From Bacteroidales bacterium (GTDB taxonomy: Bacteria > Bacteroidota > Bacteroidia > Bacteroidales > F082), in contig JAFYJV010000018.1 in assembly GCA_017537965.1 (NCBI GenBank), forward strand, positions 310,001 to 374,000: DNA of 64,000 nt, read 5' to 3'. Below, piece by piece: positions 1,452-63,615 of this stretch; the stretch's first letter is position 1; every line of letters begins with the position of its first letter. Below the pieces are notes generated by a model that saw nothing but the letters and a program-made list of their open reading frames with translations, did not search any database and was not told the DNA's origin. The translations under genes and the position numbers were made by a program.

Positions 1452-1486
1452 CTTTTCACTTTTCACTCTTTACTTTTCGCTTTTTT
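1452..1486. repeat. Heptamer array A (five units)
   Basis: Five head-to-tail 7-base units of the type CTTTTCA are visible on the plus strand with period 7. The array fills the space immediately upstream of the manA -7 box and lies upstream of the M20 start on the other strand, where it is purine-rich. Confidence 0.75.
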
Positions 1487-1488
1487 CT

Positions 1489-1496
1489 TATCTTTG
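1489..1496 (+). promoter_or_regulatory. Probable -7 box of manA promoter
   Basis: TATCTTTG matches the Bacteroidota TAnnTTTG -7 element. It sits 23 bases before the manA ATG, leaving a short leader. No convincing -33 TTTG is seen because that area is the T-rich heptamer array. Confidence 0.55.
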
Positions 1497-1519
1497 CCAC
1501 GCAAAAACTACGAGCATCC

Positions 1520-2506: not shown

Positions 2507-2519
2507 TATTTAAAACATA

Positions 2520-3023
2520 ATGAAAACCATGAAAAAGCTATTTGTTCTCTTATTCGCTGTGCTGATGATCTCTGGTGTTCAAGCCCAGCAGAAGTCTGAT
2601 CTTCCCAATGTCACCATCAAGAACCTGCAAGGCAAGGATGTGAATATCGCCAAGCTGTCGAATAACGGCAAGCCTTTCGTGATGACTTTCTGGGCTACCT
2701 GGTGCGGCCCCTGCATCAAGGAACACAACGCCTTGGACGAGGTCTATTCCGATTGGCAGGACGAAACGGGCGTGAAGATCTACTCTGTCTCCATCGACGA
2801 CTCGCGTTCCACCGCCAAAGTGAAGCCTTTCGTGGAAGGCAAGGGCTGGGATTTTGAGGTGCTGCTGGATGTCAACAAGGACTTGGCACGCGCAATGAAT
2901 GTGAGCAACCCACCCTACACCTTCCTGTTTGACGGCAAGGGCAAAATGGTATATCAACATTCGGGCTATTTTGAAGGAGCCGAGAACGACCTTTATGAGG
3001 AAATCTTAAAACTTAAGAAGTAA
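2520..3023 (+). CDS. TlpA/ResA-like periplasmic thioredoxin-fold protein
   Basis: A 167-residue exported disulfide oxidoreductase. It has a signal peptide (residues 1-22, ending VQA), a redoxin domain, an active-site W-C-G-P-C (61-65) and a cis-proline loop N-P-P-Y-T late in the chain. Proteins of this class reduce or isomerise disulfides in the periplasm, often for cytochrome maturation or envelope protein folding; the partner is not evident here. The last codons and the TAA stop fall inside heptamer array B, which also forms the spacer to the next gene. The gene probably shares a transcript with manA and the DUF6029-like gene. Confidence 0.88.
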   Translation: MKTMKKLFVLLFAVLMISGVQAQQKSDLPNVTIKNLQGKDVNIAKLSNNGKPFVMTFWATWCGPCIKEHNALDEVYSDWQDETGVKIYSVSIDDSRSTAKVKPFVEGKGWDFEVLLDVNKDLARAMNVSNPPYTFLFDGKGKMVYQHSGYFEGAENDLYEEILKLKK

Positions 3024-3047
3024 GAAGTCAGAAGACAGAAGTAAGAA
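3013..3047 (+). repeat. Heptamer array B (five units)
   Basis: Five period-7 units of the form GTAAGAA or GACAGAA run from inside the last codons of the thioredoxin gene to 4 bases before the next ATG (3052). The array is nearly the same as array M at 63581-63615. It encodes the final L-K-K and stop of the upstream gene. Confidence 0.8.
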
Positions 3048-3051
3048 TATT

Positions 3052-4782: not shown

Positions 4783-4811
4783 TGAATTTGTAATCAATCA
4801 TTTAGATCATT

Positions 4812-6828: not shown

Positions 6829-6849
6829 CTCCTCACTCCTCGCTCCTCA
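6829..6849 (-). repeat. Heptamer array C (three units) at lysC-trmO junction
   Basis: Three period-7 units TGAGGAG or CGAGGAG on the minus strand encode the last residues (R-S-E-E) and stop of LysC and also supply the AGGAG ribosome-binding sequence of trmO. Confidence 0.7.
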
Positions 6850-8122
6850 CCACATATTGTAGTGTGCTTCTGCTGCTCTGCTTCAGATACACTTTCTTTC
6901 CTTCAAGGAACTTGTCGCCCAAGGTGTAGGCGTTGTCGTAATGTCGGATGGTAAACAAAGTCAAGCCTTGGTTGTATTTCACCTGGAAGGTCTCGCGGAG
7001 CGATCCGACGAGGCCTTTTAGTTTGCGCTCGTCGTGGTCGAAGCAGAACGAGAGCATCAAAGCGGAGGTCTGGATCACGTTGGCATGGATGCCCCATTCG
7101 TCGCAGGCACCGAAGATGAGCTGCAGGTTGTGCTCATTCATGAACGAATAGTCGCGAGGCGAGATGGAGACTAGCGTCTGGTCGTCCTTGACGATATAAG
7201 AAGGGACTTTCTCGATGTTACGATCGGGTTTGCCGTCGATGATGGAGGGCGTGTGTTCGGGATGGAGAAACGACTGCACCTTGAGCGTGATGTTCTTGTT
7301 TTGTAGTGGCTTGATGGTCTTGGGGTGGATGATAGAGGCCCCGTAGAAGGCCAGCTCGATGGCTTCGGAGTAGGTGATGTGTGGCAGTTGGACTGTCTCC
7401 TCGAAGCGTTTCGGGTCGGCGTTGAGCAGTCCGTCCACGTCCTTCCAGATGGTGACTTCATCAGCATCAAGGCAATTGGCGAAGATGGCCGCTGTGTAGT
7501 CGGAGCCTTCGCGGCCCAGGGTGACGTTGTGCTTGCCATCGACGGTGGCCCCGATGAAGCCCTGGGTGATGCACACGATGCCGTGGATGTGCTCGTCGTT
7601 GAGCTTGCTGATGCGCAGTCGGGTCTCGTCCCAGTCAGGCGAAGCAGCACGGAAACGGTCGTCAGTGAGCACGTATTTGCGGGCATCGAGCCAACGGCAA
7701 GGCACATCGCAGTGGTTCAGGTATTCTTGGATGATGGTGGTGGAGATGAGTTCGCCGTAGCTCACCGTCTGGTCGTATTGGTAGTCGTATGGCTGGTCGG
7801 TGTTTTGCAGCTTCTCCCAAAGTTCAATGAACAGTTCTGACACGGATTCAATCACTGGATGTTCATGGTTTTGGTCGAACAAATCCAAGATGATTTTTTC
7901 GTGATAGGACATTACCTCATTGAGTGCGTCAATACCCAATTCCCCGTTGTGTTCGCGGAAGTCCTTGAGCGCTTTCTCCAGCATATTGGTGGTCTTGCCC
8001 ATGGCCGACACCACGAGAAAGATGTCCTCATCCTTGTGTTCCGCCACGATATTTTTGAGATTACGGACGGCGTCGGCATCTTTTACTGATGCACCTCCGA
8101 ATTTATAGATTTTCTTGATCAT
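6833..8122 (-). CDS. lysC: Aspartate kinase (monofunctional)
   Basis: Phosphorylates aspartate, the first step to lysine/diaminopimelate, threonine and methionine. The 429-residue protein starts MIKKIYKFGGASV, with the K-F-G-G substrate/ATP motif at residues 6-9. It has L-G-R-E-G-S-D-Y-T-A in the amino-acid-kinase fold near residue 200, and a C-terminal ACT-type regulatory region (about residues 290-420) beginning near VSISPRDYSFMNEH. The ATG at 8122 is chosen over an upstream in-frame TTG at 8131. No homoserine dehydrogenase domain is fused. A minus-strand TAATTTTG box lies 23-30 bases upstream. The last four residues are written by heptamer array C. Confidence 0.93.
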   Translation of the reverse strand: MIKKIYKFGGASVKDADAVRNLKNIVAEHKDEDIFLVVSAMGKTTNMLEKALKDFREHNGELGIDALNEVMSYHEKIILDLFDQNHEHPVIESVSELFIELWEKLQNTDQPYDYQYDQTVSYGELISTTIIQEYLNHCDVPCRWLDARKYVLTDDRFRAASPDWDETRLRISKLNDEHIHGIVCITQGFIGATVDGKHNVTLGREGSDYTAAIFANCLDADEVTIWKDVDGLLNADPKRFEETVQLPHITYSEAIELAFYGASIIHPKTIKPLQNKNITLKVQSFLHPEHTPSIIDGKPDRNIEKVPSYIVKDDQTLVSISPRDYSFMNEHNLQLIFGACDEWGIHANVIQTSALMLSFCFDHDERKLKGLVGSLRETFQVKYNQGLTLFTIRHYDNAYTLGDKFLEGKKVYLKQSSRSTLQYVVRSEE

Positions 8123-8144
8123 TTGATGCAAACGTTTTCAAGTG

Positions 8145-8240: not shown

Positions 8241-8280
8241 CTGAACAACTCAACAAAAAAACAAATCAACAACTCAACAT
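8241..8280 (+). repeat. AACAACTCAACA-type leader repeat before moxR
   Basis: Two copies of AACAACTCAACA separated by an A-rich stretch fill the leader up to 4 bases before the ATG. A close relative precedes coaD at 49701-49735. G is almost absent from the sense strand, so there is no Shine-Dalgarno sequence. Confidence 0.65.
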
Positions 8281-8283
8281 AAA

Positions 8284-9276
<993 letters not shown>

Positions 9277-12167: not shown

Positions 12168-13229
12168 ATGGAAAACGTATTGAGATTTGAACATCCTGAA
12201 TATTTGTATGGGTTGCTGGTTATCCCATTGCTGATCATCCTCTATATCGTGATCCGTCTATGGCAGGACAAGACCTTCAGACGTTTTGCCGACATGGGGA
12301 TGCGTGAGTATTTGGTGCCATTGCGTTCCGGTCGCCGTGGTGTCTTCAAGTTTGTCGTGTTCTTGCTGGTGATTGCCTGCCTTATTTTGGGTCTTGCCAA
12401 TTTGCAGAGCGGCTCCAAGATGGAGGAGGTCAAACGCGAGGGCATTGATCTTTACATTGCCGTGGACGTCTCCAACTCCATGAATGCCCAGGACATAGTG
12501 CCTAGCCGTTTGGATCGCTCGAAACAAGCCATCAACAATCTTATAGGCAGGCTTCAAGGCGATCGTTTGGGCGTGATTGTCTTTGCGGAAAAGGCTTTCG
12601 TTCAGTTGCCCATCACAACGGATTATGCAGCAGCCAAGATGTTCTTGGCTTCGGTCAGTACAAGCAGTGTGGCTTCACAAGGCACCGCCATCGGTGAGGC
12701 CATCAATCTGGCTGTGAAATCGTTCAACGACGACGAACGGAGCAAGGCTATCATCATCATCTCTGATGGTGAGGACCATGAGAACGAAGCCGCCATGGAA
12801 GCAGCACGTGAGGCTTCCAAGAAAGGCATCCGCATCTATACCATCGGCATGGGACTCCCCGATGGCGCACCCATACCAGAATACAACCAGTATGGAAGAA
12901 TGCTGGGTTATAAAAAAGACAAAAGCGGCAACACCATTGTCACCCGCCTTGATGAAGAGATGTTGCGCCGCATCGCCGATGCCGGTGACGGACTCTATGT
13001 CAGGGCAAGCAACTCCAACGTGGGCTTGGAAAAGATCTATGACGACATCTCTAAGATGGACAAGACTGAGATCGATACCAAGGTGTTCACCGACTATGAG
13101 GACCGTTATCAATGGTTTGTCGGCGCTGCCATTGTCTTGTTGCTGATCGTTATTTTCATGTCATCGGGCAAAAAAGCCTGGGAGACGAGATTCAGTATTT
13201 TTGAAAGGAAAGGGGAGAGCCATGAATAA
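12168..13229 (+). CDS. batB: BatB, membrane VWA-domain protein
   Basis: A paralogue of BatA with 353 residues. Two N-terminal helices are followed by a VWA domain with the MIDAS D-V-S-N-S near residue 97 and S-D-G-E-D-H near 195, then a C-terminal helix near 310-330. The frame opens with a GTG at 12162, but the ATG at 12168 gives MENVLRFEHPEYLYGLLV, matching the family start. It probably forms a complex with BatA and the TPR proteins BatC and BatE. The end overlaps batC by 8 bases. Confidence 0.9.
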   Translation: MENVLRFEHPEYLYGLLVIPLLIILYIVIRLWQDKTFRRFADMGMREYLVPLRSGRRGVFKFVVFLLVIACLILGLANLQSGSKMEEVKREGIDLYIAVDVSNSMNAQDIVPSRLDRSKQAINNLIGRLQGDRLGVIVFAEKAFVQLPITTDYAAAKMFLASVSTSSVASQGTAIGEAINLAVKSFNDDERSKAIIIISDGEDHENEAAMEAAREASKKGIRIYTIGMGLPDGAPIPEYNQYGRMLGYKKDKSGNTIVTRLDEEMLRRIADAGDGLYVRASNSNVGLEKIYDDISKMDKTEIDTKVFTDYEDRYQWFVGAAIVLLLIVIFMSSGKKAWETRFSIFERKGESHE

Positions 13230-14850
13230 GAAGCTTTTGGTAGTGATATTGCTGCTTGCGACTGTCACGTTGTCGGCCCAGACGGTTGAGAAACAGATTC
13301 GAAAAGGGAACCGACAGTATCGGAAAGGCAACTATTCGGAAGCCGAGGTGCAATATAGGAAGGCGTTGGATGCCAAGCCGATGAGTGCGGAGGCACAGTT
13401 CAATCTGGGAGATGCGTTGTATCGTCAAGAGAACTATAAGGACGCCATGGACGCTTTCCAGAAAGTGCTGGAGATGACTCCGGATACCAAGTTGAAATCC
13501 CAAGCCGTCTTTAACATGGGCAACTGTCTTCTGGAACAGGAGAAGTATTATGATGCCTTCAATACCTATAAAATTGCAATCAAATTCAATCCAGAAAACA
13601 AGGATGCCCTGTACAATCTGGAGTATTGCAGGGCACATTTGGTGAAGAGCCATGTGTGGGTCAACCCGCAGATTCCCCATGGCATGGTCGAGGCCAGTGA
13701 GTCGATGGCATTCAATGGCCAGATGGTGACATTGACATCGAAAGCTGAAGGGGAATATGCCTTGTCGCAGTATGTGGTGGTGAAAGCCGACGACCAACAG
13801 GTGACTGTTCCTGTAAGCGGCAGCCGTTTCGAGATGCCGAAGTTCGACGTGATTGTCACGGGTGAGTTCAAGCCACTGCGTACCATTACCATTGACCAAA
13901 AGATAGCCCATGGCAAGATTTCTGCTGATCGCAAAAAGGCCGTTGAGGGTCAGCAGGTGACCCTTCATGCCCAGCCTGATCCGAAGTATATGGTCGATGC
14001 CTATTTTGTCACAAAGACGGGCAACCCTCAAGACACGGTGCCGGTAAACGACACGGTGTTCCAAATGCCGGACTTCGATGTCACCGTGTCGGCTAGGTTT
14101 AGGACGGCCCTCCGTGTCCAGGTGGATTCAACGGAGCATGGACAGATTCAAGTGACTGATTCATTGGCGTTGCCTGGCCAGAATATCGGGGTGATCGTTA
14201 AGCCTGATGCCGGCTATCAATTGAACGAGCTCTATGTGGTGAGCGACAAGGATCCGTCAACAACGGCGCCAGTCTCTGACCTGAACGTTTTCCAAATGTT
14301 GGACGACGATGTCACCGTAAAGGCTTCTTTCGTGGAGGCACAAGAATATTATAAGGTGCTGCCGGACACTTTGGTCGAAGGCGGCCATGTATTGCTGGAT
14401 GTTGAGAAGGCTACACGGGGAGAGACGGTGACGCTTCGTAACGCACCGGAACCAGGATACCAATTCAAGGAATACAAGATCTGTCAGTTGACTGACACTG
14501 CCGTGCAGGTTCAACCTTTGGGCAACTTCTTTACCATGCCGGGCTTCGACGTGATGGTTAGCGCGGTCTTCGAGAAGCAAGAAGGTGAGAACCAGGATCA
14601 ACAGCAAAATCAACAGGATCAGCAACAGGAACAACAGGATCAGCAAGATCAACAACAGGATCAGGATCAACAGAATCAACAGGATCAACAACAGCAGCAA
14701 CAGCAACAACAGAATCCTCAAGATATGTCGAAGGATGATGCACAGCGGATGTTGGATGCTTTGGAGAACCAGGAGAAGAAGACCATGGAAAAGGTGAACG
14801 AACAGAAGATCCGGACCCAACCAAAACGGAAAACGGATAAAGATTGGTAA
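13222..14850 (+). CDS. batC: BatC TPR protein with four inserted InlB-type B-repeats
   Basis: A 542-residue exported protein. In order: signal peptide (1-20); TPR units (about 24-135); four repeats of about 75-80 residues (about 145-222, 223-300, 301-378, 379-452), each built as h-G-x-I, G-Q-x-V-T, a G-Y or K-Y turn, and closing F-x-M-P-x-F-D-V-x-V-x-A-x-F; a Q/D-rich tract (about 455-500); and the usual BatC tail ending K-D-W. The closing motif is that of divergent InlB B-repeat (Flg_new_2-like) modules. A standard BatC is roughly half this size and goes straight from TPRs to the Q-rich tail, so the block looks inserted. The ATG at 13222 overlaps the batB end. Confidence 0.85.
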   Translation: MNKKLLVVILLLATVTLSAQTVEKQIRKGNRQYRKGNYSEAEVQYRKALDAKPMSAEAQFNLGDALYRQENYKDAMDAFQKVLEMTPDTKLKSQAVFNMGNCLLEQEKYYDAFNTYKIAIKFNPENKDALYNLEYCRAHLVKSHVWVNPQIPHGMVEASESMAFNGQMVTLTSKAEGEYALSQYVVVKADDQQVTVPVSGSRFEMPKFDVIVTGEFKPLRTITIDQKIAHGKISADRKKAVEGQQVTLHAQPDPKYMVDAYFVTKTGNPQDTVPVNDTVFQMPDFDVTVSARFRTALRVQVDSTEHGQIQVTDSLALPGQNIGVIVKPDAGYQLNELYVVSDKDPSTTAPVSDLNVFQMLDDDVTVKASFVEAQEYYKVLPDTLVEGGHVLLDVEKATRGETVTLRNAPEPGYQFKEYKICQLTDTAVQVQPLGNFFTMPGFDVMVSAVFEKQEGENQDQQQNQQDQQQEQQDQQDQQQDQDQQNQQDQQQQQQQQQNPQDMSKDDAQRMLDALENQEKKTMEKVNEQKIRTQPKRKTDKDW

Positions 14851-14883
14851 TAGAAGATAGAAGACAGGAGTTAGAAGCAAGAA
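14849..14883 (+). repeat. Heptamer array E (five units) between batC and batD
   Basis: Five period-7 units such as GATAGAA and GCAAGAA begin in the batC stop codon and end 8 bases before the batD ATG at 14892. This is the only sizeable spacer among the overlapping batA-batE genes apart from 16764-16803, which is also repetitive. Confidence 0.75.
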
Positions 14884-14891
14884 GTTTGTAT

Positions 14892-16767: not shown

Positions 16768-16795
16768 GGAATTGGAATTAAGAAATAAAAAGATA
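16768..16795 (+). repeat. Heptamer array F (four units) between batD and batE
   Basis: Four imperfect period-7 units (GGAATTG, GAATTAA, GAAATAA, AAAGATA) fill the spacer ahead of batE. This is more degenerate than arrays B, E and M. Confidence 0.5.
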
Positions 16796-29327: not shown

Positions 29328-30293
29328 TTAGAGGTAATTCTTTCCTGAGAGGTAGTTTTTCACGTAATCGGTGACACCGTCTTCGAGTGAGGTGAAGGAC
29401 TCGTCGTAGCCCGCTTTACGCAGTTTTCCAATGTTGGCTTCGGTGAAATACTGGTATTTGTCGCGGATGTCGATGGGAGTGTCGATGAATTGGATGTTGG
29501 TGGCTTTCCCCATGGCTTTGAAGGTGCTGTCGGTGAGGTCGTAGAAGGAACGTGCCTGGCCGGTGCCTACGTTGTACAATCCGTTTTCGGGGCGGTGTTC
29601 CATCAGCCAGAGGATGACTTTGGCGACGTCTTTTACATAGACGAAGTCGCGCAACTGTTGGCCGTCTTCGTAATCGGGACGATGGGAACGGAACAACTGC
29701 ATCTTTCCAGTCTCGTTGATTTGTTGGAAGGCATGGAGGATGACGGAGGCCATGCGACCTTTATGGTATTCGTTGGGACCATACACGTTGAAGAACTTCA
29801 ATCCAGCCCAAAACGGAGGCTGTTGGTCTTGTTGGAGCAGGTATTTGTCGATCTCGTTCTTCGAACGGCCGTATGGATTCAAAGGCTTCAACTTGGCTAC
29901 GATATCGTGCCGGTCGTCGTATCCAAGTTCTCCCAAGCCGTAGGTGGCTGCCGAGGAGGCGTAAATCAAGGGGATTTGATGGATGGAGCAGCATTTCCAA
30001 AGTTGGATGGTGTAATCCACGTTGAGCTGTTGAAACACGCTGTAGTCGAACTCAGTGGTGTCTGTTCGGGCGCCAAGATGGATGATAAAGTCAACACTAG
30101 GATGGTTTTTGTCAAGCCAATCAAAAAAACGGTCCCGATCGATTAATGCAAGATAATTCTTGTCTGTGTAGTTGGCTTTTTTTTCTTCCCTGCTGAAGTC
30201 GTCAACAAGGACAAGGTCATTTTGGCCATGGCTGTTAAGCGCACCTGTAACCACGCTTCCGATGAACCCCGCTGCTCCCGTTATTATTACCAT
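29328..30293 (-). CDS. rfaD: ADP-L-glycero-D-manno-heptose 6-epimerase
   Basis: NADP-dependent sugar epimerase that makes the heptose donor for the lipopolysaccharide inner core. The 321-residue extended SDR protein begins MVIITGAAGFIGSVV (G-x-x-G-x-x-G), has S-S-A-A-T-Y-G near 113-119 and the catalytic Y-G-R-S-K near 140. Similarity throughout to HldD/RfaD is good; other NDP-sugar epimerases are less likely given the ADP-heptose type K-A-N-Y-T-D segment. It is the last gene of the PASTA-T9SS-rluD-rfaD run and is preceded by heptamer array G. Confidence 0.88.
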   Translation of the reverse strand: MVIITGAAGFIGSVVTGALNSHGQNDLVLVDDFSREEKKANYTDKNYLALIDRDRFFDWLDKNHPSVDFIIHLGARTDTTEFDYSVFQQLNVDYTIQLWKCCSIHQIPLIYASSAATYGLGELGYDDRHDIVAKLKPLNPYGRSKNEIDKYLLQQDQQPPFWAGLKFFNVYGPNEYHKGRMASVILHAFQQINETGKMQLFRSHRPDYEDGQQLRDFVYVKDVAKVILWLMEHRPENGLYNVGTGQARSFYDLTDSTFKAMGKATNIQFIDTPIDIRDKYQYFTEANIGKLRKAGYDESFTSLEDGVTDYVKNYLSGKNYL

Positions 30294-30321
30294 CTTCTTG
30301 CTTCTAACTTCTTACTTCTGA
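30294..30321 (-). repeat. Heptamer array G (four units) at rluD-rfaD junction
   Basis: Four period-7 units (TCAGAAG, TAAGAAG, TTAGAAG, CAAGAAG on the minus strand) abut the rfaD ATG. They also encode the last residues (S-E-V-R-S) and stop of the upstream pseudouridine synthase. Confidence 0.8.
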
Positions 30322-35824: not shown

Positions 35825-37708
35825 TCATAAAGGTTGATACAGTCCGGTGAGTCTGGTGTTGAACCGAGTGCTGTAATAATCCATCTTTGTTACAATCATC
35901 GTGCCTTTATCTTGATTCCAAAGGAATGTCTTGATGATTTTTCCATGGATCGGGAAATGTTTCTCATCGAAACGCACTGCATTCACCAGTTGATGGGGCC
36001 CAGGCGCCATGGCGTTTCCTTGGTCGCTGCCCTGCCATAACAGCAAGGAGTCGGTCGCTTGGTCGTGTATTTCCATGACGAGGATGCATCGGCTGAGGGT
36101 GTCGATGGCTTGAAGGGTGGCTGTGATGCCCACGACATCGGTGTCGGCATCGAGTGAATCGCCGTAGAGGACCAAGGGCTTTCCCCATTCCATTTCGACA
36201 AAAGGCATGGGCTCATGCGACAAGGGCTGAAGCAGCGGCTTCGCGCCAGGGACGGAGTCTCTCGAAAGGGTGAGGTAGCGTGAGGTGAACCAGGTGTTCT
36301 CGTGGATCAGCCAAGGGTAGTAGGCGACGGCTTGCGTCTCCCAAACGGGATTGGCATAGTCGGTCCAGCCGAACCCGATTTGCTCGCTGTCACCGTTTTC
36401 GAGCCATTGACGCATGTCGGAGAGGTCGTTGTCGTAATCGAAGATGACGCGGTTGGTGACGTTGGCCTTTGCTTGATAGTATTCGGGCACCTTAGCCGAC
36501 TCGGTGAAGGTGGCGAAACGGATGCAGGGGATGCTGTCGCTGTCTTGCTTCATCCGCTGGGCGATTTGGTCATAACCTTGATGGTACATCAAATCGTAAT
36601 GCTGACGGTTGACAATCAAGGAGCTGGCGCCTATAAAAAGGATCGCAGCCACGGCGATGACGGTCTGCATTTTGGTCATTGTGTTGTTTCGGAATAGTGA
36701 AAAGGCCACCATGACAAAGAAGGGATAGCAGAAGATCATCGTGCTGTATTGGATGATGGGTTCGCGGAGCAGGGAATAGACGAAGGCCAGCGCGAAGATG
36801 ACAAGGAACCAGACGATGCCAGCCCAACGGATGGGTTTGCGGCGTTTTTCCCATTTGCCGAGGATAAGGGGCAAGATGATGATGAGACCGACAGCGAACA
36901 TGAAGAGCGGTGCGTAATTCATCGAATAGCGCAGGAATTGGATGATGAAGTCGTTGTCGGGTCGGGCCAGCCATCCGCCGATGCCACCGTTTACAAAGGT
37001 TTGCTGATAGAACACGGGCAAGTGGGGCGAATAAAGCACGATGGCACCGATGCCGCTGAGCCAATAGGCCTTGCGACGTTCTTTCTTAAGGTAAAACAGT
37101 CCCGTCAAGAAGATGAGTCCCGCCTGGGCGGCAGAGAAATTGTGTGCCAAGGCAGCCAGACAAGCGGAGACAGCAAAGCCGATCACCGTGCCGACAGAAG
37201 GTTTTTTCGGGTCGAAGAGGATCTTGTTCCAGAAATAGGTCAACAGCAGCACGAAGAACAGCCCAGCGGCATAGGGACGGGCGAGTTGGCTGTAGAATAC
37301 CGTGAGTTGGCTGACGGCAAAGAAGGCGGCGGAGAGCAACCCGACTTTGCGGTTGAACCATTGTTTCCCGATGACATAGATTAGGTAAACGGAACCGATG
37401 CCCATCAACGCAAACGGCAGTTTTACCCAGAATTCGTTCCAGCCGACCAATTTAGTCCAATAATACAGGAAGACTTGCACCCCGGCTGGATGGGAGTCGT
37501 TTTCGCTGACACCGTACTGGATGAGATCGTGGAAGTTGTCGAACCTGAGTCGGAACAAGGCGCTAAACTCGTCGTGCATGAAAGGCACTTTCCCGAGTTT
37601 CCATAGACGCAACAAGGCAGCTACCAGCAGAATTACTCCCAACAGGACATAATCCAACTTGACGCTGGTTTTGTTTCTCACCTTGCGTAAATGATGCTTC
37701 CTCTCCAT
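35825..37708 (-). CDS. Glycosyltransferase family 39 (PMT/ArnT-like) membrane protein
   Basis: A 627-residue integral membrane protein with about ten or more hydrophobic helices in the first 400 residues and a soluble C-terminal domain. The catalytic acidic pair of the GT-C fold is seen after helix 1 (F-M-H-D-E-F-S-A-L near 43-51). Such enzymes move sugars from polyprenyl phosphates to proteins or lipids in the periplasm. Substrate is unknown; protein O-mannosylation of secreted proteins is plausible in Bacteroidales. It sits between pyrH and frr, with heptamer array H in front. Confidence 0.82.
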   Translation of the reverse strand: MERKHHLRKVRNKTSVKLDYVLLGVILLVAALLRLWKLGKVPFMHDEFSALFRLRFDNFHDLIQYGVSENDSHPAGVQVFLYYWTKLVGWNEFWVKLPFALMGIGSVYLIYVIGKQWFNRKVGLLSAAFFAVSQLTVFYSQLARPYAAGLFFVLLLTYFWNKILFDPKKPSVGTVIGFAVSACLAALAHNFSAAQAGLIFLTGLFYLKKERRKAYWLSGIGAIVLYSPHLPVFYQQTFVNGGIGGWLARPDNDFIIQFLRYSMNYAPLFMFAVGLIIILPLILGKWEKRRKPIRWAGIVWFLVIFALAFVYSLLREPIIQYSTMIFCYPFFVMVAFSLFRNNTMTKMQTVIAVAAILFIGASSLIVNRQHYDLMYHQGYDQIAQRMKQDSDSIPCIRFATFTESAKVPEYYQAKANVTNRVIFDYDNDLSDMRQWLENGDSEQIGFGWTDYANPVWETQAVAYYPWLIHENTWFTSRYLTLSRDSVPGAKPLLQPLSHEPMPFVEMEWGKPLVLYGDSLDADTDVVGITATLQAIDTLSRCILVMEIHDQATDSLLLWQGSDQGNAMAPGPHQLVNAVRFDEKHFPIHGKIIKTFLWNQDKGTMIVTKMDYYSTRFNTRLTGLYQPL

Positions 37709-37713
37709 TCTAA

Positions 37714-37748
37714 CTACTTACTTCTGTCTTCTGACTTCTCACTTCGTC
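37714..37748 (-). repeat. Heptamer array H (five units) at pyrH-GT39 junction
   Basis: Five period-7 units such as TCAGAAG and ACAGAAG (minus strand) run from the last pyrH codons to within 6 bases of the GT39 ATG. The TGA stop of pyrH is part of one unit. Confidence 0.78.
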
Positions 37749-38446: not shown

Positions 38447-38479
38447 AGTAATTCAGTTAATTATTCATAATTAATAAAA

Positions 38480-38518
38480 CTCCTCACTCCTCATTCCTAA
38501 TTCCTCATTCTTCACTCG
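38480..38518 (-). repeat. Heptamer array I (five to six units) at OPT-pyrH junction
   Basis: Period-7 units (TGAGGAG, TTAGGAA, TGAAGAA on the minus strand) begin inside the coding end of the OPT gene, where they encode S-E-E and the TGA stop, and continue into the spacer. The remaining spacer to pyrH is AT-rich. Confidence 0.78.
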
Positions 38519-46180: not shown

Positions 46181-46201
46181 CTTCTAACTCCTAACTTCTA
46201 T
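46181..46201 (-). repeat. Heptamer array J (three units)
   Basis: Three period-7 units (CTTCTAA, CTCCTAA, CTTCTAT on the plus strand; purine-rich on minus) fill the 25-base gap between the convergent nucleotidase and folE genes and end at the folE stop. Confidence 0.65.
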
Positions 46202-49096: not shown

Positions 49097-49718
49097 CAAG
49101 ATTTTCTATGAACAGCGCGCATTGATTTTTCCGAATATCGAGGAAAAAAGTCTGGTATTGGATGCAACTGCCCCACAATTAGAGACATACGAGGTGGAAA
49201 AAATCCACAATTTTTTTCGTCAGTGGCTGGTGACGTCCCTGCGCGAGGACGTCGTGATCGACGGTATCGACCCGGAGGTGCTTTCGGCTGCGTTATGTCG
49301 CACTTTTGTCATGGCGCCTGCTGCAGGCGGTGTGGTCGTGAAAGACGGAGCCGTGGCAGTTATCGAGCGTCATGGGATCCCCGACCTGCCCAAAGGGCAT
49401 GTCGAGGAGGGCGAGTCGGTCGTCGAGGCTGCTGTGCGAGAGGTGGAGGAGGAGACAGGCCTTACAGGGCTTCAGGTCGTCAGCCAGCTGCCCTCGTCGT
49501 GGCATTGCTATCTGCTCGAAGAAGAATGGAGGCTCAAGCAGACCTCTTGGTTCCTGATGGCGTCTGACGACACCAGCCATCTGCAACCGCAACGGGAGGA
49601 GGGCATCACCGAAGTGGTCTTCCTCGACGTAGGGCAGCTGGATTGGTTCCTGGGTAACACCTACCGTTCCATCGCAGATACCCTTGGAGAAGAAATCAAA
49701 CAACAACTCAACAAATAA
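49092..49718 (+). CDS. Nudix hydrolase
   Basis: A 208-residue protein. An N-terminal region of about 75 residues (MYKIFYEQRALIFPNIEEKS) of unknown function precedes a Nudix domain. The Nudix box, G-x5-E-x7-R-E-x-x-E-E-x-G, runs from G-H-V-E-E-G-E near residue 98 to E-E-E-T-G-L near 120 and is intact. It should hydrolyse a nucleoside diphosphate linked to some moiety; the substrate is unknown. The long frame opens at 48930 but only the ATG at 49092 lies after the promoter box. The last residues (Q-Q-L-N-K) and stop are part of the repeat ahead of coaD. Confidence 0.88.
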   Translation: MYKIFYEQRALIFPNIEEKSLVLDATAPQLETYEVEKIHNFFRQWLVTSLREDVVIDGIDPEVLSAALCRTFVMAPAAGGVVVKDGAVAVIERHGIPDLPKGHVEEGESVVEAAVREVEEETGLTGLQVVSQLPSSWHCYLLEEEWRLKQTSWFLMASDDTSHLQPQREEGITEVVFLDVGQLDWFLGNTYRSIADTLGEEIKQQLNK

Positions 49719-49735
49719 CAACTCAACAATTCAAC
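49701..49735 (+). repeat. AACAACTCAACA-type repeat between Nudix gene and coaD
   Basis: Two copies of AACAACTCAACAA plus a third partial copy, spaced 7-8 bases per half-unit, span the end of the Nudix gene and abut the coaD ATG. The same motif precedes moxR at 8241-8280. Confidence 0.7.
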
Positions 49736-50203
49736 ATGAAAAGAATCGCCGTTTTCCCAGGATCTTTCGATCCGATCACTCTTGGGCACCGCTCCATCGT
49801 GTTGCGCGCCCTTCCGATGTTCGACATCATCTACGTCGCTGTCGGCGTCAATATGGAGAAGCGTTCCACCTTCCCACTGGAGAACCGCATCAAATGGGCT
49901 CAAGCCGTCTTTGCCGACTATCCCAACGTCATCGTGGAGAGCTATGACGGACTTACCGCCGACTTCTGCAAGAAGGTGGGTGCCAGGTTCATCATCCGTG
50001 GCCTTCGCAGCGGCAGCGACTTCGAATATGAGAACATGATTTGCCATGCCAACAAGCGGCTGCATCCCGAGCTGGAGACAGTGTTCCTGCTGACAGAGAG
50101 CGAGTTGGTCGGTGTCAGCTCCAGCGTGGTGCGCGACATCTACAAGAACGGCGGAGATACTTCCAAATTTGTACCTGAGGAGGTGGAGTTGACTGACAAA
50201 TAA
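49736..50203 (+). CDS. coaD: Phosphopantetheine adenylyltransferase
   Basis: Penultimate step of coenzyme A synthesis. The 155-residue nucleotidyltransferase has F-P-G-S-F-D-P-I-T-L-G-H near residues 6-17 (the T/H-x-G-H motif), R-G-L-R-S-G-S-D-F-E-Y-E near 86-97 and the S-S-S-x-V-R motif near 127-132. It is full length. It is followed after 30 bases by the thioredoxin-fold gene. Confidence 0.95.
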   Translation: MKRIAVFPGSFDPITLGHRSIVLRALPMFDIIYVAVGVNMEKRSTFPLENRIKWAQAVFADYPNVIVESYDGLTADFCKKVGARFIIRGLRSGSDFEYENMICHANKRLHPELETVFLLTESELVGVSSSVVRDIYKNGGDTSKFVPEEVELTDK

Positions 50204-51597: not shown

Positions 51598-51618
51598 CAC
51601 GAATTTTGCCCAAGTGGC

Positions 51619-51653
51619 AATCTCTAAATTCTAAAATCTTAATTCTAAATTCT
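51619..51653 (+). repeat. Heptamer array K (five units) in secA leader
   Basis: Five period-7 units (AAATTCT, AAAATCT, TAATTCT and similar) fill the secA leader up to 6 bases before the ATG. Unlike most arrays, the purine-rich strand is antisense to the gene. Confidence 0.75.
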
Positions 51654-51659
51654 ACATAA

Positions 51660-56281: not shown

Positions 56282-56300
56282 TGTTTATTTTATTTAATGA

Positions 56301-56349
56301 ATCTATTCTATCTTCTGTCTTCTGCCTTCTATCTTCTGACTTCTTCCAA
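56301..56349 (-). repeat. Heptamer array L (six to seven units) at GT39-pepT junction
   Basis: The longest array: six clear period-7 units such as CAGAAGA and TAGAAGG (minus strand), running from inside the end of the GT39 gene, where they encode E-V-R-R and the TAG stop, toward the pepT start at 56281. Confidence 0.82.
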
Positions 56350-57882
56350 CGTCGGCGGCCCATAAACGAGCCCTTTGCATTCGTAAACGAAGATGTTGCG
56401 GACGGTATTGCCGCAACGTGTGATGGGGATGATACCCACCAACTCGATATCCTTGAAGTTGACGTAGGCGTATGCTTGTTCCGGGTCAATGAAGAAATGG
56501 CTGTCGGCGAGGTACCAATAGTTGGTTCCGATCTTGAAACCACCTCTTTTTTCATTGATCCATTGATATTTATGGATGCGGTTGAGGGGGCCGTAGCCTA
56601 GCACCTTCAATCCCAGTGGCCGGGCTGCATAGTAGTCGATGTTGGCCGTTGGGAACCAGTTGTTGCCGATGATGCCGTCCTCTTCTTTCATCTTTCCCGC
56701 GGCGATTTCTTGGGCGCGTATCTCTTCGAACTTCGGTCCGAGCTGTCTCCATCCGTACATGTCCAAGGTGAAATCGTCTTTGCCCAATTCCCTGGCATCG
56801 GTGTGACGATCCAAAGGGATGAAGCCCGTCTTGATCTCAGCGACTCCGACCGCTAAGGTGATGGCTAGCAAGGCAAGTGCGGCTATTAGCAACGGCTTCC
56901 GACTGTTCTTGTTGGGCGTTCCTATCCAGCAGGCGCTGAGCAGGATCAGCAGGTTGTAGGCTGGTCCCGACCAATGCGGCAGGGTGGGTCTCGTCATCGA
57001 GAAGAAAAGGAAGAGTCCGATCATGGGCAAGGCAGTGAGGAGGATGAGCCTTTGCATCTGGCGGTCGATGGAAATCCGTTTGCGGAAGGCGGCAATCACA
57101 GCAAGGATGGCGAAGACGAAGTTGACGGGGTTGTTATAGAAGCATTCGCCTGCCAGCTCGGTGAAGAAGCTGCTCGGGTTGAAATGTCCGAACAGACCGA
57201 CACGGTCGCCATGGAAACGGAAGCTGATGAAGTCGTTTTGGATGTTCCAGATAAGGATCGGAAGACAACATAGGGCGGTGATCAGCAAGGATAGATACAG
57301 ACACGGACGCTTGAATGTCTTGCGGTCGTAAAAAAGGAGATAGAGCAGGGCGCCCACCCAAAGGAAGACACCGGTGTATTTCGAGAGGATGCTGAGTCCA
57401 GCGAACAAGCCAGCCAGGAGCAAGTCGCCGCTGCTTCCTCTTTTAAGGTATCTGACAAACATCCAGAAGGAGAGCAGCCAGAAGAGACTCAGCGGGGTGT
57501 CGGGCAGGATGAAGATGCCAGTGATGACAAAGGCGTAAACAGAGGCGGTGTAGAGGAGGGCGGCAACGAGGCCGGTGCGATCGTCCTTGAGCTCTTTGCC
57601 GATGCGGTAGATGATCCAGGTGCAGAGCGTCATGGACACTACCGATGCGAGGCGCAGGAAGAACTCGCTGTCGAAGTGCAGGTTGAGGCTGAAGAGTTGA
57701 ATCATCCAACCTACCATGCCGGGATGGTCGAAATGACTCCAGTCGGGGAACATCGCGTAAGTCCAATAATAGACCTCGTCGTTGCCCAATTCCATCCATC
57801 CAGCCAACAATGCGCGGATCAGTGCGCTGACCGTGAGGAGAAGGAAGATGGGCTTTATCCGCCGAGGTTGATTCGTCTCCAT
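56329..57882 (-). CDS. Glycosyltransferase family 39 membrane protein (second copy)
   Basis: A 517-residue multi-helix membrane protein of the ArnT/PMT class. The catalytic pair is visible after helix 1 in L-G-N-D-E-V-Y-Y-W (near 33-41), and W-S-H-F-D-H-P-G-M-V-G-W, a family hallmark, follows. It should transfer a sugar from a polyprenyl carrier in the periplasm. The ATG at 57882 is preferred to one 11 codons upstream, because it begins 3 bases after the stop of the PHP gene. Distinct from the pyrH-adjacent GT39, which is longer and not closely similar by eye. Confidence 0.86.
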   Translation of the reverse strand: METNQPRRIKPIFLLLTVSALIRALLAGWMELGNDEVYYWTYAMFPDWSHFDHPGMVGWMIQLFSLNLHFDSEFFLRLASVVSMTLCTWIIYRIGKELKDDRTGLVAALLYTASVYAFVITGIFILPDTPLSLFWLLSFWMFVRYLKRGSSGDLLLAGLFAGLSILSKYTGVFLWVGALLYLLFYDRKTFKRPCLYLSLLITALCCLPILIWNIQNDFISFRFHGDRVGLFGHFNPSSFFTELAGECFYNNPVNFVFAILAVIAAFRKRISIDRQMQRLILLTALPMIGLFLFFSMTRPTLPHWSGPAYNLLILLSACWIGTPNKNSRKPLLIAALALLAITLAVGVAEIKTGFIPLDRHTDARELGKDDFTLDMYGWRQLGPKFEEIRAQEIAAGKMKEEDGIIGNNWFPTANIDYYAARPLGLKVLGYGPLNRIHKYQWINEKRGGFKIGTNYWYLADSHFFIDPEQAYAYVNFKDIELVGIIPITRCGNTVRNIFVYECKGLVYGPPTLEEVRR

Positions 57883-57884
57883 CG

Positions 57885-59087: not shown

Positions 59088-59103
59088 GCTATTAAAATTA
59101 TTG

Positions 59104-59111
59104 CAAATGTA
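59104..59111 (-). promoter_or_regulatory. Probable -7 box of PHP-GT39-pepT operon
   Basis: TACATTTG on the minus strand fits TAnnTTTG, 17 bases before the ATG at 59087. Confidence 0.55.
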
Positions 59112-59148
59112 ATTCTTTCTTTTTGATTGCCAATTCCTAATTTATGGT

Positions 59149-59156
59149 TATTTTTG
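59149..59156 (+). promoter_or_regulatory. Probable -7 box of suf operon
   Basis: TATTTTTG fits TAnnTTTG, 36 bases before sufB. The leader then has AGGAG 6 bases before the ATG, one of few clear Shine-Dalgarno sequences in the window. Confidence 0.6.
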
Positions 59157-59191
59157 CACCCTAATTTAAAATTATTCTTAATAGGAGTAAA

Positions 59192-60643: not shown

Positions 60644-60741
60644 AAACAATGCTGCGGTTTTTTACCAAGAAGGTTGGTTCTTCCCCATTTCGTGAAATCC
60701 GCAACGAAGTTGCTAAATTCAAAACCAAAAGGAAAACATAA

Positions 60742-60759
60742 AATTCGTGTAATTCGTAG
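60742..60759 (+). repeat. Nonamer tandem pair in sufB-sufC gap
   Basis: AATTCGTGT and AATTCGTAG stand head to tail with period 9, 16 bases before the sufC ATG. The rest of the 132-base gap holds an imperfect AAGAA/TTCTT hairpin and no recognisable gene. Confidence 0.4.
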
Positions 60760-60775
60760 TTAAAAAACAACATAT

Positions 60776-61528
60776 ATGTTACTGAATATCAAAAATCTAC
60801 ATGTCTCTGTTGGGGGAAAGGAAATCCTGAAAGGCCTCAACCTTGGCGTCAACGAAGGTGAAGTCCACGCCATCATGGGTCCCAACGGAACGGGAAAGAG
60901 CACCTTGGCGGCAGCCATCACGGGACGTGAGGGCTATGAGATCACCGAAGGCGAGATCTGGTACAAAGGCAAGAACATCGTCGGGATGTCGCCCGAGGAC
61001 AGGGCCAACGAAGGCATCTTCCTCAGCTTCCAGTACCCCGTGGAGATCCCGGGCGTGAGCATCCAGAACTTCATGCGCACCGCAGTCAATGCCAAGCGCG
61101 AATATAAGGGCCTTCCCGCTCTTTCCACCATCGAGTTCATGAAACAGATGAGAGAGAAGCAGGCCATGGTGGAGATCACCGAGAAGCTACAGAACCGTTT
61201 CGTCAACGTGGGCTTCTCCGGCGGCGAGAAGAAGAAGAACGAGATCTTCCAGATGGCCATGCTGGAACCCAGCCTGGCCATCCTCGACGAGACCGACTCG
61301 GGCTTGGATATCGATGCCTTGCGTATCGTGGCCAACGGCGTCAACCAGCTTCACAACAAGGAGAACGCCTTCGTGGTCATCACGCACTACCAGCGGCTGT
61401 TGGACTATATCGTGCCCGACTTCGTCCATGTGATGTACGACGGCCGTATCGTCAAGAGTGGCGGCAAGCATCTCGCCATCGAGCTGGAGGAGAAGGGTTA
61501 TGAATGGATCAAGGAAATGAACCCGTAA
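60776..61528 (+). CDS. sufC: Fe-S cluster assembly ATPase SufC
   Basis: ABC-type ATPase that drives conformational change in SufBC2D. The 250-residue protein has Walker A G-P-N-G-T-G-K-S-T near 36-44, the ABC signature F-S-G-G-E-K-K-K-N near 149-157, Walker B L-A-I-L-D-E-T-D-S-G-L-D near 169-180, and the switch His in V-I-T-H-Y near 203. Its TAA stop overlaps the sufD ATG (TAATG). Confidence 0.97.
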   Translation: MLLNIKNLHVSVGGKEILKGLNLGVNEGEVHAIMGPNGTGKSTLAAAITGREGYEITEGEIWYKGKNIVGMSPEDRANEGIFLSFQYPVEIPGVSIQNFMRTAVNAKREYKGLPALSTIEFMKQMREKQAMVEITEKLQNRFVNVGFSGGEKKKNEIFQMAMLEPSLAILDETDSGLDIDALRIVANGVNQLHNKENAFVVITHYQRLLDYIVPDFVHVMYDGRIVKSGGKHLAIELEEKGYEWIKEMNP

Positions 61529-62364
61529 TGCACACGACGATGGAATTTCTTGAGAACAATATCGTGGTGGAGCCCAACCAGTACCGTCAGCTGGTCGTGA
61601 TCGACGATACGGAGCATCTTCAAGCCAACGAGGAGCATTGCGACATCGTGGTGGGTGAGAACGCCAGCTTGGAGATGTACCGTATCCAGAACCTCGACAA
61701 CAACGCGGACCTGGTGACCAACATCCATATCCATCAGCAGCGCGACAGCAGGGTGCATTTCGTGGTCGTCAGCTTCAATGCAGGCGTGCTCCGCAACAAC
61801 ATCGTGGTCGATATCGACGGCGAGGGCTGCGAGACCCAGGTCTATGGCCTCTATCTGGTGGACAAGAAACAGCATGTGGAGAACTATTTGAAGATCAACC
61901 ACAACGTGCCTCATTGCTCAAGCGACACCCGTTTCAAGGGCATCATCGACGACGAAGCTTCGGCGGTGTTCAACGGTCATGTGTATGTGGCTCCTGGAGC
62001 GCAAAAGACCGATGCCCAGCAAAACAATGCCAACATTATCCTGACCTCCACGGCCAAGATCGACACCAAGCCGTTCCTGGAGATCTATGCCGACGACGTG
62101 AAGTGCTCGCATGGTACCTCTACCGGCCAGCTCGACCAGGAAGCCATGTTCTATATGAGGCAAAGAGGCATCAGTCAAGCCAACGCCAGGATGCTGTTGA
62201 TGTATGCCTTCGCCGCCGACATCAGCAACCACATCAAGATCGACAGCCTGCATGTGACCATCGACGACATGATCAAACGCCGTCTCCGTGGCGAACTTTC
62301 GGCTTGTGACCACTGTGTGCTGCAATGCAAAAACCCTGTGGGACACCATAAAGCTTTACGGTAA
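61528..62364 (+). CDS. sufD: Fe-S cluster assembly protein SufD, short form
   Basis: Partner of SufB in the scaffold. The C-terminal core is complete: a right-handed beta-helix ending K-C-S-H-G-T-S-T-G-Q-L-D near 200-211, with the conserved His, and M-Y-F/Y-M-R-Q-R-G-I soon after. At 278 residues from the TAATG-coupled ATG (286 from 61504), it lacks the roughly 130-150 residue N-terminal helical region of typical SufD proteins. Reading frame and spacing show no sign of damage, so the short form appears genuine. The stop overlaps sufS, again as TAATG. Confidence 0.9.
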   Translation: MHTTMEFLENNIVVEPNQYRQLVVIDDTEHLQANEEHCDIVVGENASLEMYRIQNLDNNADLVTNIHIHQQRDSRVHFVVVSFNAGVLRNNIVVDIDGEGCETQVYGLYLVDKKQHVENYLKINHNVPHCSSDTRFKGIIDDEASAVFNGHVYVAPGAQKTDAQQNNANIILTSTAKIDTKPFLEIYADDVKCSHGTSTGQLDQEAMFYMRQRGISQANARMLLMYAFAADISNHIKIDSLHVTIDDMIKRRLRGELSACDHCVLQCKNPVGHHKALR

Positions 62365-63584
62365 TGGATATCAACGAAATAAGAAAGCAGTTTCCGGTCC
62401 TCGACCAGCAGGTCTATGGCAAACCTTTGGTCTATCTCGACAACGCGGCGACCACCCAAAAGCCCCTTTGCGTGATTGAGCGTGAGCGCGACTATTACCT
62501 GCACGAGAACTGCAACATCCATCGCGGGGTGCATTACCTCAGCCAGATGGCCACCGAGGCATACGAACACGCCCGTCAGACCGTGGCACGATTCATCAAC
62601 GCCCCTGAGGCCCAAGAGATCGTCTTCACCCGTGGCACAACGGAATCGCTGAATTTGTTGGCAACGTCATTATTGGGGACACATTCAATGTGTCCTTGCA
62701 ACCCAACCGTGCTGGTGACTGCCATGGAACACCATTCCAACCTCGTTCCTTGGCAGCAGATGGTCCAGCGTCAAGGTGGCAAATTATTGGTGGCCCCGAT
62801 GGACGATAGCGGCGTGCTTGATCTTCATGCCTACGAAGACCTTCTGAAACAAGGCCCTCAAATCGTGTCCATGGCCCATGTGTCGAACACCCTCGGCACG
62901 GTGAATCCTGTGAAGGAAATGATTCGCCTGGCCCACCAATATGGCGCTTTGGCCGTAGTCGATGGTGCCCAGTCGATGGCGCATCTGCCGATCGATGTTC
63001 AGGATTTGGATTGCGATTTCTTCGTCTTTTCCGGTCATAAGATGTATGCTCCGATGGGCATAGGCGGCTTGTATGGCAAGACCGAGTGGCTTGAAAAGTT
63101 GCCGCCTTATCAGTTCGGCGGCGAGATGGTGGATACGGTGAGTTTCGAGAAGACCACTTTCAACAAGCTGCCCTTCAAGTTTGAGGCTGGTACGCCCAAT
63201 GTGGGCGCCGCTTTGGGCCTGGAGACGGCCATCCATTATATTGAGAGCTTCGACCGGAACGAAGTCTTAAAGCATGAAGATGCTTTGGTGGCTGCGACCA
63301 TCAAGGGTCTATCGAAGATCGAAGGGATGCGTTTCATCGGTCAGGCGCCCGTGCGCAGTGGCTTGGTGAGTTTCATCATCGATGGCATCCATCCTTACGA
63401 TCTTGGCACCATTATTGACAAGATGGGCGTGGCCGTCCGCACCGGTCACCATTGCGCCGAGCCCGTGATGACCCGTTTCGGCATCCCTGGCACGGTGCGC
63501 GCCTCTTTTGCGATGTATAACACCTTGGAAGAAGTTGAGGTTTTGGTGAAGGCGGTAAACAAGGCTGCAAATATGTTGAGATAA
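62364..63584 (+). CDS. sufS: Cysteine desulfurase SufS
   Basis: PLP enzyme that takes sulfur from cysteine for Fe-S synthesis. The 406-residue class V aminotransferase-fold protein has Y-L-D-N-A-A-T-T-Q-K-P near 29-39, the PLP lysine in F-S-G-H-K-M-Y-A-P near 224, and the persulfide Cys in R-T-G-H-H-C-A-E-P near 363. The TAATG overlap with sufD gives coupled translation. Heptamer array M begins within its stop codon. Confidence 0.96.
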   Translation: MDINEIRKQFPVLDQQVYGKPLVYLDNAATTQKPLCVIERERDYYLHENCNIHRGVHYLSQMATEAYEHARQTVARFINAPEAQEIVFTRGTTESLNLLATSLLGTHSMCPCNPTVLVTAMEHHSNLVPWQQMVQRQGGKLLVAPMDDSGVLDLHAYEDLLKQGPQIVSMAHVSNTLGTVNPVKEMIRLAHQYGALAVVDGAQSMAHLPIDVQDLDCDFFVFSGHKMYAPMGIGGLYGKTEWLEKLPPYQFGGEMVDTVSFEKTTFNKLPFKFEAGTPNVGAALGLETAIHYIESFDRNEVLKHEDALVAATIKGLSKIEGMRFIGQAPVRSGLVSFIIDGIHPYDLGTIIDKMGVAVRTGHHCAEPVMTRFGIPGTVRASFAMYNTLEEVEVLVKAVNKAANMLR

Positions 63585-63615
63585 GAAGTCAGAAGAAAGA
63601 AGACAGAAGTAAGAA
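63581..63615 (+). repeat. Heptamer array M (five units) between sufS and sufE
   Basis: Five period-7 units (GTCAGAA, GACAGAA, GTAAGAA and similar) start in the sufS stop and end 6 bases before the sufE ATG. Seventeen consecutive bases, from GACAGAAG through AATAT, are the same as in array B, 60 kb away. Confidence 0.82.

What the first reader, a model, noticed from the sequence alone, without database searches (positions are those of the whole stretch)
1452..63615. A dispersed family of 7-base-period repeat arrays at gene junctions
Thirteen short arrays with strict 7-base period lie at gene junctions or starts: 1452-1486, 3013-3047, 6829-6849, 14849-14883, 16768-16795, 30294-30321, 37714-37748, 38480-38518, 46181-46201, 51619-51653, 56301-56349, 63581-63615, and a related leader before moxR. 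Units are degenerate (GTAAGAA, GACAGAA, TGAGGAG, AAATTCT) but the period holds. In most cases the purine strand is the sense strand of the flanking genes and the array ends 4-8 bases before the next ATG, where a ribosome-binding site would be. They could be translation enhancers, slippery spacers that tune expression, binding sites for a sequence- or period-reading protein, or relics of a mini-element. Heptameric repeats are known in cyanobacteria; I know of no named family in Bacteroidota.
Basis: partly seen in the sequence, partly recalled or inferred. Interest (0 to 1): 0.8.

Follow-up and report, generated by a model that had tools for sequence, protein, structure and literature searches.

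The report
Seven-base repeat arrays at gene ends
Between their genes this bacterium and several of its relatives carry short DNA stretches that repeat every seven bases; from species to species the letters often change while the seven-base rhythm, the place and mostly the direction stay, which points to a rule about repeat length rather than a fixed signal sequence.

Summary
A sequence-blind period-7 scan (15 of 21 matches) recovers 10 of the 12 listed arrays; at 16 of 21 there are 9, against 0.05 per 64 kb simulated. 16768 is weak, 46181 short, the moxR leader has period 8. In 464 kb of this genome 40 of 49 arrays are noncoding (noncoding DNA 9.5%). In relatives, array presence at orthologous junctions is shared (58 both, 79 one, 368 neither), but 38 of the 58 differ by two or more heptamer bases; secA leaders have lag 7 as best period in 35 of 39. 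Arrays attached only to a 3' gene end are G-rich on the coding strand in 63 of 67 (background 274:273); 35 of 38 neighbouring pairs run G-rich then C-rich. Best explanation (0.4): spacer DNA made in 7-nt steps by slippage, its units renewed, kept as leader, spacer or 3' hairpin; a new variant of known bacterial heptamer repeats.

The parts
1449..1489 (.). ACTTTTN-type array between divergent starts and promoter-like motifs; ACTTTTN-type arrays in the orthologous junctions of G034 and G023
3001..3047 (+). AGAAGNN array, contains the stop codon of 2520-3023, ends 4 nt before ATG 3052
6829..6849 (-). TGAGGAG array (3 units), overlaps the stop of 6833-8122(-)
14849..14883 (+). AGAAGNN array, overlaps the stop at 14850, ends 8 nt before 14892; AGAAG arrays also at the orthologous junction of G034, G023 and G020
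16768..16795 (+). weak array (12 of 21 lag-7 matches), not recovered by the scan
30294..30321 (-). AGAAGNN array, overlaps the stop of 30304-31362(-), abuts the start of 29328-30293(-)
37708..37748 (-). AGAAGNN array between the AA_kinase (pyrH-like) gene and a PMT_2 gene; other heptamers or no array at this junction in relatives
38479..38518 (-). KAGGART-type array, overlaps the stop of 38505-40511(-)
46181..46201 (-). three AGAAG-like units filling a convergent gap, not recovered by the scan
51618..51657 (+). AAATTCT array in the secA leader; the cited stretch ends 6 nt before ATG 51660
56300..56349 (-). AGAAGNN array, overlaps the stop of 56329-57795(-)
63578..63619 (+). AGAAGNN array, overlaps the stop at 63584; the cited stretch ends 6 nt before ATG 63622; AGATAAR units at the orthologous junction in G034 and G020
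8244..8279 (+). period-8 array directly before the moxR-like gene 8284-9276; related, not a heptad

Best explanation
The arrays are spacer DNA produced in seven-base steps at gene junctions. A replication or repair polymerase slips or re-primes by one unit of about 7 (sometimes 8) nt; the product is tolerated mostly outside reading frames, so arrays come to occupy the interval between one gene's end and the next. Existing arrays are now and then overwritten by other units, partly the same units as in arrays elsewhere in the genome, so the unit turns over while period, place and usually orientation persist. Selection keeps arrays that work locally: little-structured leaders in front of starts and, after stops, a G-rich sense array that in about a third of cases has an inverted partner that could form a 3' hairpin. 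Shown: period, position, stop contact, orientation at 3' ends, unit differences at the same junction, shared vocabulary within a genome. Inferred: slippage, copying between loci, the local uses.
For: Period 7 dominates noncoding DNA and other periods are rare there. At the pyrH-PMT junction (the same downstream gene follows in 20 of 30 loci read, by eye) 11 have an array, with AGAAG, ACGGAAA, GTGGAAA, AGGTGAA or AGTTAGG-type units, and 9 have none. Array presence at orthologous junctions is shared, odds ratio 13.8 over 505 non-independent comparisons. Same purine-strand orientation in 47 of 54 orthologous pairs; unit consensus within one mismatch in 34% of 58 orthologous pairs, 22% of 2025 pairs of loci in one genome, 12% of 5601 pairs between genomes, 5.5% of scrambled controls. 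Loci in one genome share a 14-mer in 192 of 2013 pairs, between genomes (orthologues included) in 235 of 5613, phase-scrambled control 0.004-0.007. 22 of 67 arrays at 3' ends have an inverted partner; permuted mean 5.5, maximum 12 of 200. Array-bearing co-directional leaders are less structured than array-free ones, mean -4.1 (62) against -6.4 kcal/mol (172).
Against: Array-bearing gaps are not simply lengthened: against the array-free orthologue the median gain is 7 nt, quartiles -6 and 36.5, longer in only 48 of 79. Copy number looks stable: the 4 arrays found in 41 orthologous regions of G149 and G150 differ in gap length by -1, -1, +4 and +6, not by sevens. Some leader arrays are identical between species 85% alike at fourfold sites. 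Within arrays a core (AACT, AGAAG) is constant and two or three positions vary, which simple slippage does not predict. Array leaders are no less structured than shuffles of their own letters (z -0.01), so composition, not repetition, gives the openness. Slippage does not explain the 63:4 orientation at 3' ends. No polymerase was identified.
Confidence: 0.4

Rival explanations
1. RNA-level elements selected as such: G-rich arrays after stops, with their inverted partners, are terminators or 3' stability hairpins, and arrays before starts are leaders for SD-independent initiation; the period is a by-product of how such elements evolve.
For: 63 of 67 3'-only arrays G-rich in sense against 274:273 background; neighbouring arrays G-rich then C-rich 35, reverse 1, both C-rich 2; 25 of those 35 have units within one mismatch of complementary. 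secA leaders keep lag 7 as best period in 35 of 39.
Against: 45 of 67 3' arrays show no inverted partner under the test used; 10 of 35 G-then-C pairs are not complementary; orientation at 5' ends outside secA (15:6, 2 equal) does not differ from background 509:292. In other Bacteroidales the pair order is 6 against 2. It gives no reason for seven.
Confidence: 0.27
2. A protein or ribosomal component reads the 7-nt period on RNA or single-stranded DNA with weak sequence preference (S1-like, cold-shock-like or RRM-like), docking once per unit.
For: Period and position outlast the letters; constant core with variable spacer, e.g. AACTNNN. MacGregor 2015 proposed S1, Csp or Csr for TAACTGA (PMC4679880, abstract).
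Against: Arrays lie in both orientations, at 3' ends and in convergent gaps; very different units (AGAAGNN, AACTNNN, AATGCGG, AGATAAA) would have to be read by one factor. No candidate protein was tested here.
Confidence: 0.13
3. Scars of DNA-end extension: broken ends are extended outward with G-rich heptads, telomere-like, by a reverse transcriptase or similar enzyme and then joined, leaving G-rich then C-rich arrays.
For: The 35:1 G-then-C order and units such as TTAGAGG and AGTTAGG.
Against: No RVT_1 match in G000, G010 or G036, which are array-rich (G010 and G036 judged by the AGAAG pattern alone; G000 is 93.8% complete); 10 of 18 genomes do have one. Ku in 0 of 18. It does not predict that single arrays follow the nearer gene's 3' end.
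Confidence: 0.07
4. One reading: purine-rich sense arrays as ribosome landing sites.
For: 6 of 12 window arrays end 4-8 nt before a start.
Against: Many arrays have the other orientation or no start nearby; convergent arrays; non-purine secA leaders. Adding or omitting an SD did not affect the reporter level in Prevotella bryantii (PMC3155529, passages).
Confidence: 0.06

Closest known systems
GGGAATC (Xanthomonas) and GGGGA(C/T)T (Nostoc/Anabaena) heptameric repeats, PMC4692102 (passages; sections 13 and 16)
   Same: Period 7, mostly intergenic, close to ORF ends and overlapping stop codons, G-rich strand coding downstream and non-coding upstream of ORFs, most sites shared between two species with length and sequence variation.
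   Different: There one G-run heptamer per group, studied as a quadruplex former; here many units per genome, mostly without such G-runs, and different units at the same junction in different species.
TAACTGA direct repeats of Beggiatoaceae, cyanobacteria and five Bacteroidetes, PMC4679880 (outline with abstract and passages)
   Same: Heptamer direct repeats mostly just upstream of start codons; AACTGAT, a rotation of it, is one unit in secA leader arrays of relatives.
   Different: One fixed heptamer, related heptamers rarely or never repeated there; here degenerate units of many kinds, also at 3' ends.
Heptanucleotide simple sequence repeats and cyanobacterial STRR (surveys recalled, or known here only as cited in PMC4679880 and PMC4692102)
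   Same: Heptamers over-represented among longer bacterial tandem repeats; polymerase slippage proposed.
   Different: Degenerate units at this density in gut and rumen Bacteroidales; the surveys themselves were not read.
REP/BIME-type extragenic palindromes (recalled; PMC3733652 seen as a search listing with the start of its abstract)
   Same: Inverted array pairs after genes resemble 3' palindromes.
   Different: Arms are heptad arrays of varying unit, and most arrays are unpaired.

Membership tests
bacterial heptameric tandem repeats (kind) | unit of 7 nt in tandem, far above chance | tested here: met
bacterial heptameric tandem repeats (kind) | mostly intergenic | tested here: met
   40 of 49 arrays in 9.5% of the sequence; 36 of 266 counted as coding in the wider set
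Xanthomonas/Nostoc GGGAATC-type repeats | G-run heptamer able to form a quadruplex | tested here: not met
   The cited window arrays have at most two adjacent G (read); no folding test was done.
Xanthomonas/Nostoc GGGAATC-type repeats | G-rich strand coding at 3' ends and non-coding at 5' ends | tested here: inconclusive
   3' side 63:4, met; 5' side outside secA 15:6, not above background. Other Bacteroidales, period 7: 3' side 10:0, 5' side 7 C-rich, 1 G-rich, 2 equal.
TAACTGA repeats | fixed heptamer TAACTGA | tested here: not met
   None of the cited window arrays is built of TAACTGA; it occurs as one unit among others in relatives.
Shine-Dalgarno leaders | AGGAGG-like sense sequence before starts | tested here: not met
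   Not general.
MITE / mobile mini-element | common ends or shared flanks at different loci | tested here: not met
   By eye, flanks of 20 array stretches in G149 show no common ends apart from one sequence present twice; target duplications were not examined.
phase-variable simple repeats | copy number changes by whole units between strains | tested here: inconclusive
   4 arrays compared between two species, no 7-nt steps; no within-species data.

The most novel reading that the evidence does not exclude
A sequence-independent heptad rule: some factor or polymerase in these bacteria writes or reads DNA or RNA in steps of seven at gene ends, with the G-rich strand pointing away from the 3' end of genes, so that a junction can exchange its whole heptamer for another and stay functional. 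The resemblance to Xanthomonas and Nostoc would then reflect one shared mechanism unrelated to quadruplexes.
Probability: 0.15. Interest if true: 0.88.

Novelty: new variant of a known kind. Interest (0 to 1): 0.6.

Why it matters
In the two studies seen here, bacterial heptamer repeats were described one unit at a time and without an established function. A group where period, place and 3' orientation persist while the unit differs between species separates period from sequence, so slippage, period-reading and RNA-structure models can be told apart by comparison and by simple leader-swap assays. It also shows that one conserved heptamer is not needed for the phenomenon.

Tried and rejected
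Purine ribosome landing pad: rejected as general. Frame-independent stop arrays: units such as ACGGAAA or AATGCGG carry no stop codon (read). One genome-wide core set by one trans factor: not supported for AACT/AATT, since the three genomes whose matches were printed (G160, G149, G158 of 12 searched) carry both cores in different arrays; in one of the 12 (G153) the reversed control (56) exceeds the matches (52). Genome-wide copies of one exact secA cassette: its 26-mer was found once each in G021, G030 and G034 of 89 genomes, so no support. Reverse transcriptase or Ku dependence: not supported. Phylum-wide generality: one period-7 array in 353 kb from 20 other Bacteroidota, none in 200 kb of E. 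coli K-12, although the AAYT heptad pattern matches in 76 of 118 phylum genomes, with reversed-control matches equal or higher in some. Literature: nine searches, some with listings capped at 10 or 15 of many papers, showed no description of multi-unit heptad arrays in Bacteroidales; most subscription papers are outside that library. Limits: own simple gene caller, start choices uncertain; thresholds chosen by me after first looks; orthologous loci are not independent. First counts of the orientation rule and of array pairs counted some contigs twice and are replaced, which drops L022, L023, L041, L057 and L029 but still holds orthologous loci; only the row for other Bacteroidales, not touched by this, is used. 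Of the 266 arrays, coding (36), contig-edge (14), convergent-gap-filling (22) and unattached (19) ones do not enter the orientation counts.
Full report
Observation. The window lies at G000:C17:310001-374000 of a 2.32 Mb, 41-contig genome. Its nearest secA homologues (95-96% identity) lie in uncultured Bacteroidales genomes, many with rumen or gut isolate names; a partial match at 88% is labelled Candidatus Limimorpha equi, a genus of Bacteroidales. TRF and direct reading confirm period-7 arrays at the cited places. A scan blind to sequence finds 10 places at 15 of 21 matches, all among the 12 cited; at 16 of 21 it gives 9 arrays against a mean of 0.05 in 20 Markov simulations, period 14 gives 7 and other periods 0 to 3. 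16768-16795 is weak (12 of 21), 46181-46201 has three units, and the leader before the moxR-like gene has period 8.

Genome scale. In 464 kb (window plus 20 stretches) my gene caller gives 90.5% coding; at 16 of 21 matches 40 of 49 period-7 arrays are noncoding, while periods 4-6 and 8-13 give 0 to 6 each in noncoding DNA. Lag-7, 14 and 21 excesses appear in co-directional gaps, lag 7 and 14 also in convergent ones, not on average in divergent ones. Relative to genes the rise begins about six bases before the stop codon and is stronger just after stops than just before predicted starts. In the window 8 of 12 arrays overlap a stop codon, 2 more lie within 4 nt of one, and 6 of 12 end 4-8 nt before a start. 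Other chunks of the genus give, at 17 of 21, 29 noncoding arrays in 260 kb (G034), 23 in 139 kb (G023), 17 in 200 kb (G020), 5 in 188 kb (G048) and 2 in 119 kb (G149). Other Bacteroidales fetched with secA (680 kb, 37 loci) have 26 period-7, 22 period-8 and 10 period-9 arrays, coding included. Controls: E. coli K-12 0 in 200 kb; 20 other Bacteroidota 1 in 353 kb, at 16 of 21. So the trait is lineage-bound. The AGAAG pattern likewise is abundant in some species of the genus and absent in others (44 of 149 relatives have a match).

Same place, other letters. In 39 secA leaders (window plus the 38 loci examined, all of them loci that hold the secA start; the loci of more distant Bacteroidales, L061-L077, L079-L081 and L083-L100, were not examined for this) lag 7 is the best of lags 4-13 in 35; mean lag-7 match is 0.604. 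The ten sequence clusters have mean 0.577 and best lag 7 in 8, against a shuffle mean of 0.335 and maximum 0.42 of 500. Units include AAATTCT, AACTNNN, AATTNNN, TAACCCC and AATCTTN. L044 and L050, 95% alike at fourfold sites, have leader arrays only 69% alike, while L036 and L048, 85% alike, have identical ones. Downstream of pyrH in 30 loci (own included), the same next gene follows in 20 by eye; 11 of these have an array, with AGAAG, ACGGAAA, GTGGAAA, AGGTGAA or AGTTAGG-type units, and 9 have none. Over 505 orthologous junction comparisons in six pairs of four species: both arrays 58, one only 79, neither 368; Fisher odds ratio 13.8, the comparisons not being independent. Array-bearing gaps exceed their array-free orthologues in 48 of 79 only, median +7 nt, so arrays are not simply added length. 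Of the 58, the unit consensus differs by 0, 1, 2, 3, 4 bases in 6, 14, 15, 21, 2, and the purine strand is the same in 47 of 54 scorable. Orthologous units are within one mismatch in 34%, different loci of one genome in 22%, loci of different genomes in 12%, scrambled in 5.5%. Loci of one genome share 14-mers about twice as often as loci of different genomes, 192 of 2013 against 235 of 5613, and both far exceed the scrambled control. So units turn over, memory of the locus is modest, and genomes have a partly shared vocabulary.

Orientation. After removing contigs counted twice (266 arrays at 15 of 21 in 2.06 Mb), arrays within 20 nt of only a 3' gene end have more G than C on the coding strand in 63 of 67; array-free 30 nt after stops give 274 G-rich, 273 C-rich, 71 equal. 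In this genome alone it is 12 of 13. Arrays near only a 5' end are C-rich in 15, G-rich in 6, equal in 2 outside secA, like the background (509:292:110), so the 5' half of the rule is not shown. Neighbouring arrays within 60 nt are G-rich then C-rich in 35, the reverse in 1, both C-rich in 2; 25 of the 35 have units within one mismatch of complementary. 22 of 67 3' arrays have an inverted partner within 90 nt against a permuted mean of 5.5 and maximum of 12. In other Bacteroidales the 3' rule is 10 of 10 for period 7 and 3 of 4 for period 8; their pair order is weaker, 6 against 2. The same strand preference is reported for GGGAATC and GGGGA(C/T)T repeats of Xanthomonas and Nostoc (PMC4692102, sections 13 and 16), where quadruplexes were considered; the window's units lack such G-runs.

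Mechanism. I commit to slippage-made spacer with unit turnover and local use (0.4). Seven-base preference in bacterial tandem repeats and the polymerase-contact idea are in print as quoted by PMC4679880 and PMC4692102. Against simple slippage stand the lengths of the four arrays compared between G149 and G150, whose aligned stretches are 90-96% alike, the constant cores with variable spacers, and the orientation rule. RNA-level selection is the main rival and may act together with it. Leaders with arrays are less structured than leaders without, but not less than shuffles of themselves, so openness comes from composition. An end-extension model fits the G-then-C order but lacks an enzyme: no RVT_1 in three array-rich genomes, though 10 of 18 have one, and no Ku in 18.

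Place among known things. It belongs to the loose kind of bacterial heptameric repeats, differs from TAACTGA and from the quadruplex heptamers by unit, and adds exchange of units at fixed sites. Nine literature searches, some with capped listings, showed no description of it in Bacteroidales; the library omits most subscription papers.

Noticed in passing
window 14593-14711: CAA/CAG-rich, glutamine-coding repeat (TRF periods 21, 18, 9) near the end of the TPR gene 13222-14850 in the Bat/MoxR cluster.
   Followed up: no
window 8244-8279 and 49701-49736: Period-8 arrays; other Bacteroidales show about as many period-8 as period-7 arrays.
   Followed up: partly
window 1449-1489, 14852-14886 and 63583-63615: TRF also reports period 14 for these arrays, so units may alternate in pairs.
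   Followed up: no
L054 6549, 13287, 22506: Three inverted AATGCGG array pairs within 16 kb with a similar loop (AACCTATCGGAGT or its complement), like a dispersed bidirectional hairpin.
   Followed up: partly
L160 and L162: The printed array and flanks are identical on two contigs of G149, so that genome bin may hold a duplicated stretch.
   Followed up: no
L113, L115-L118 and L121, 3' of the pyrH-like gene: A longer inverted element (TCACTGCGAGG...CCTCGCAATGA) follows the gene in these relatives, apparently another dispersed palindrome.
   Followed up: no
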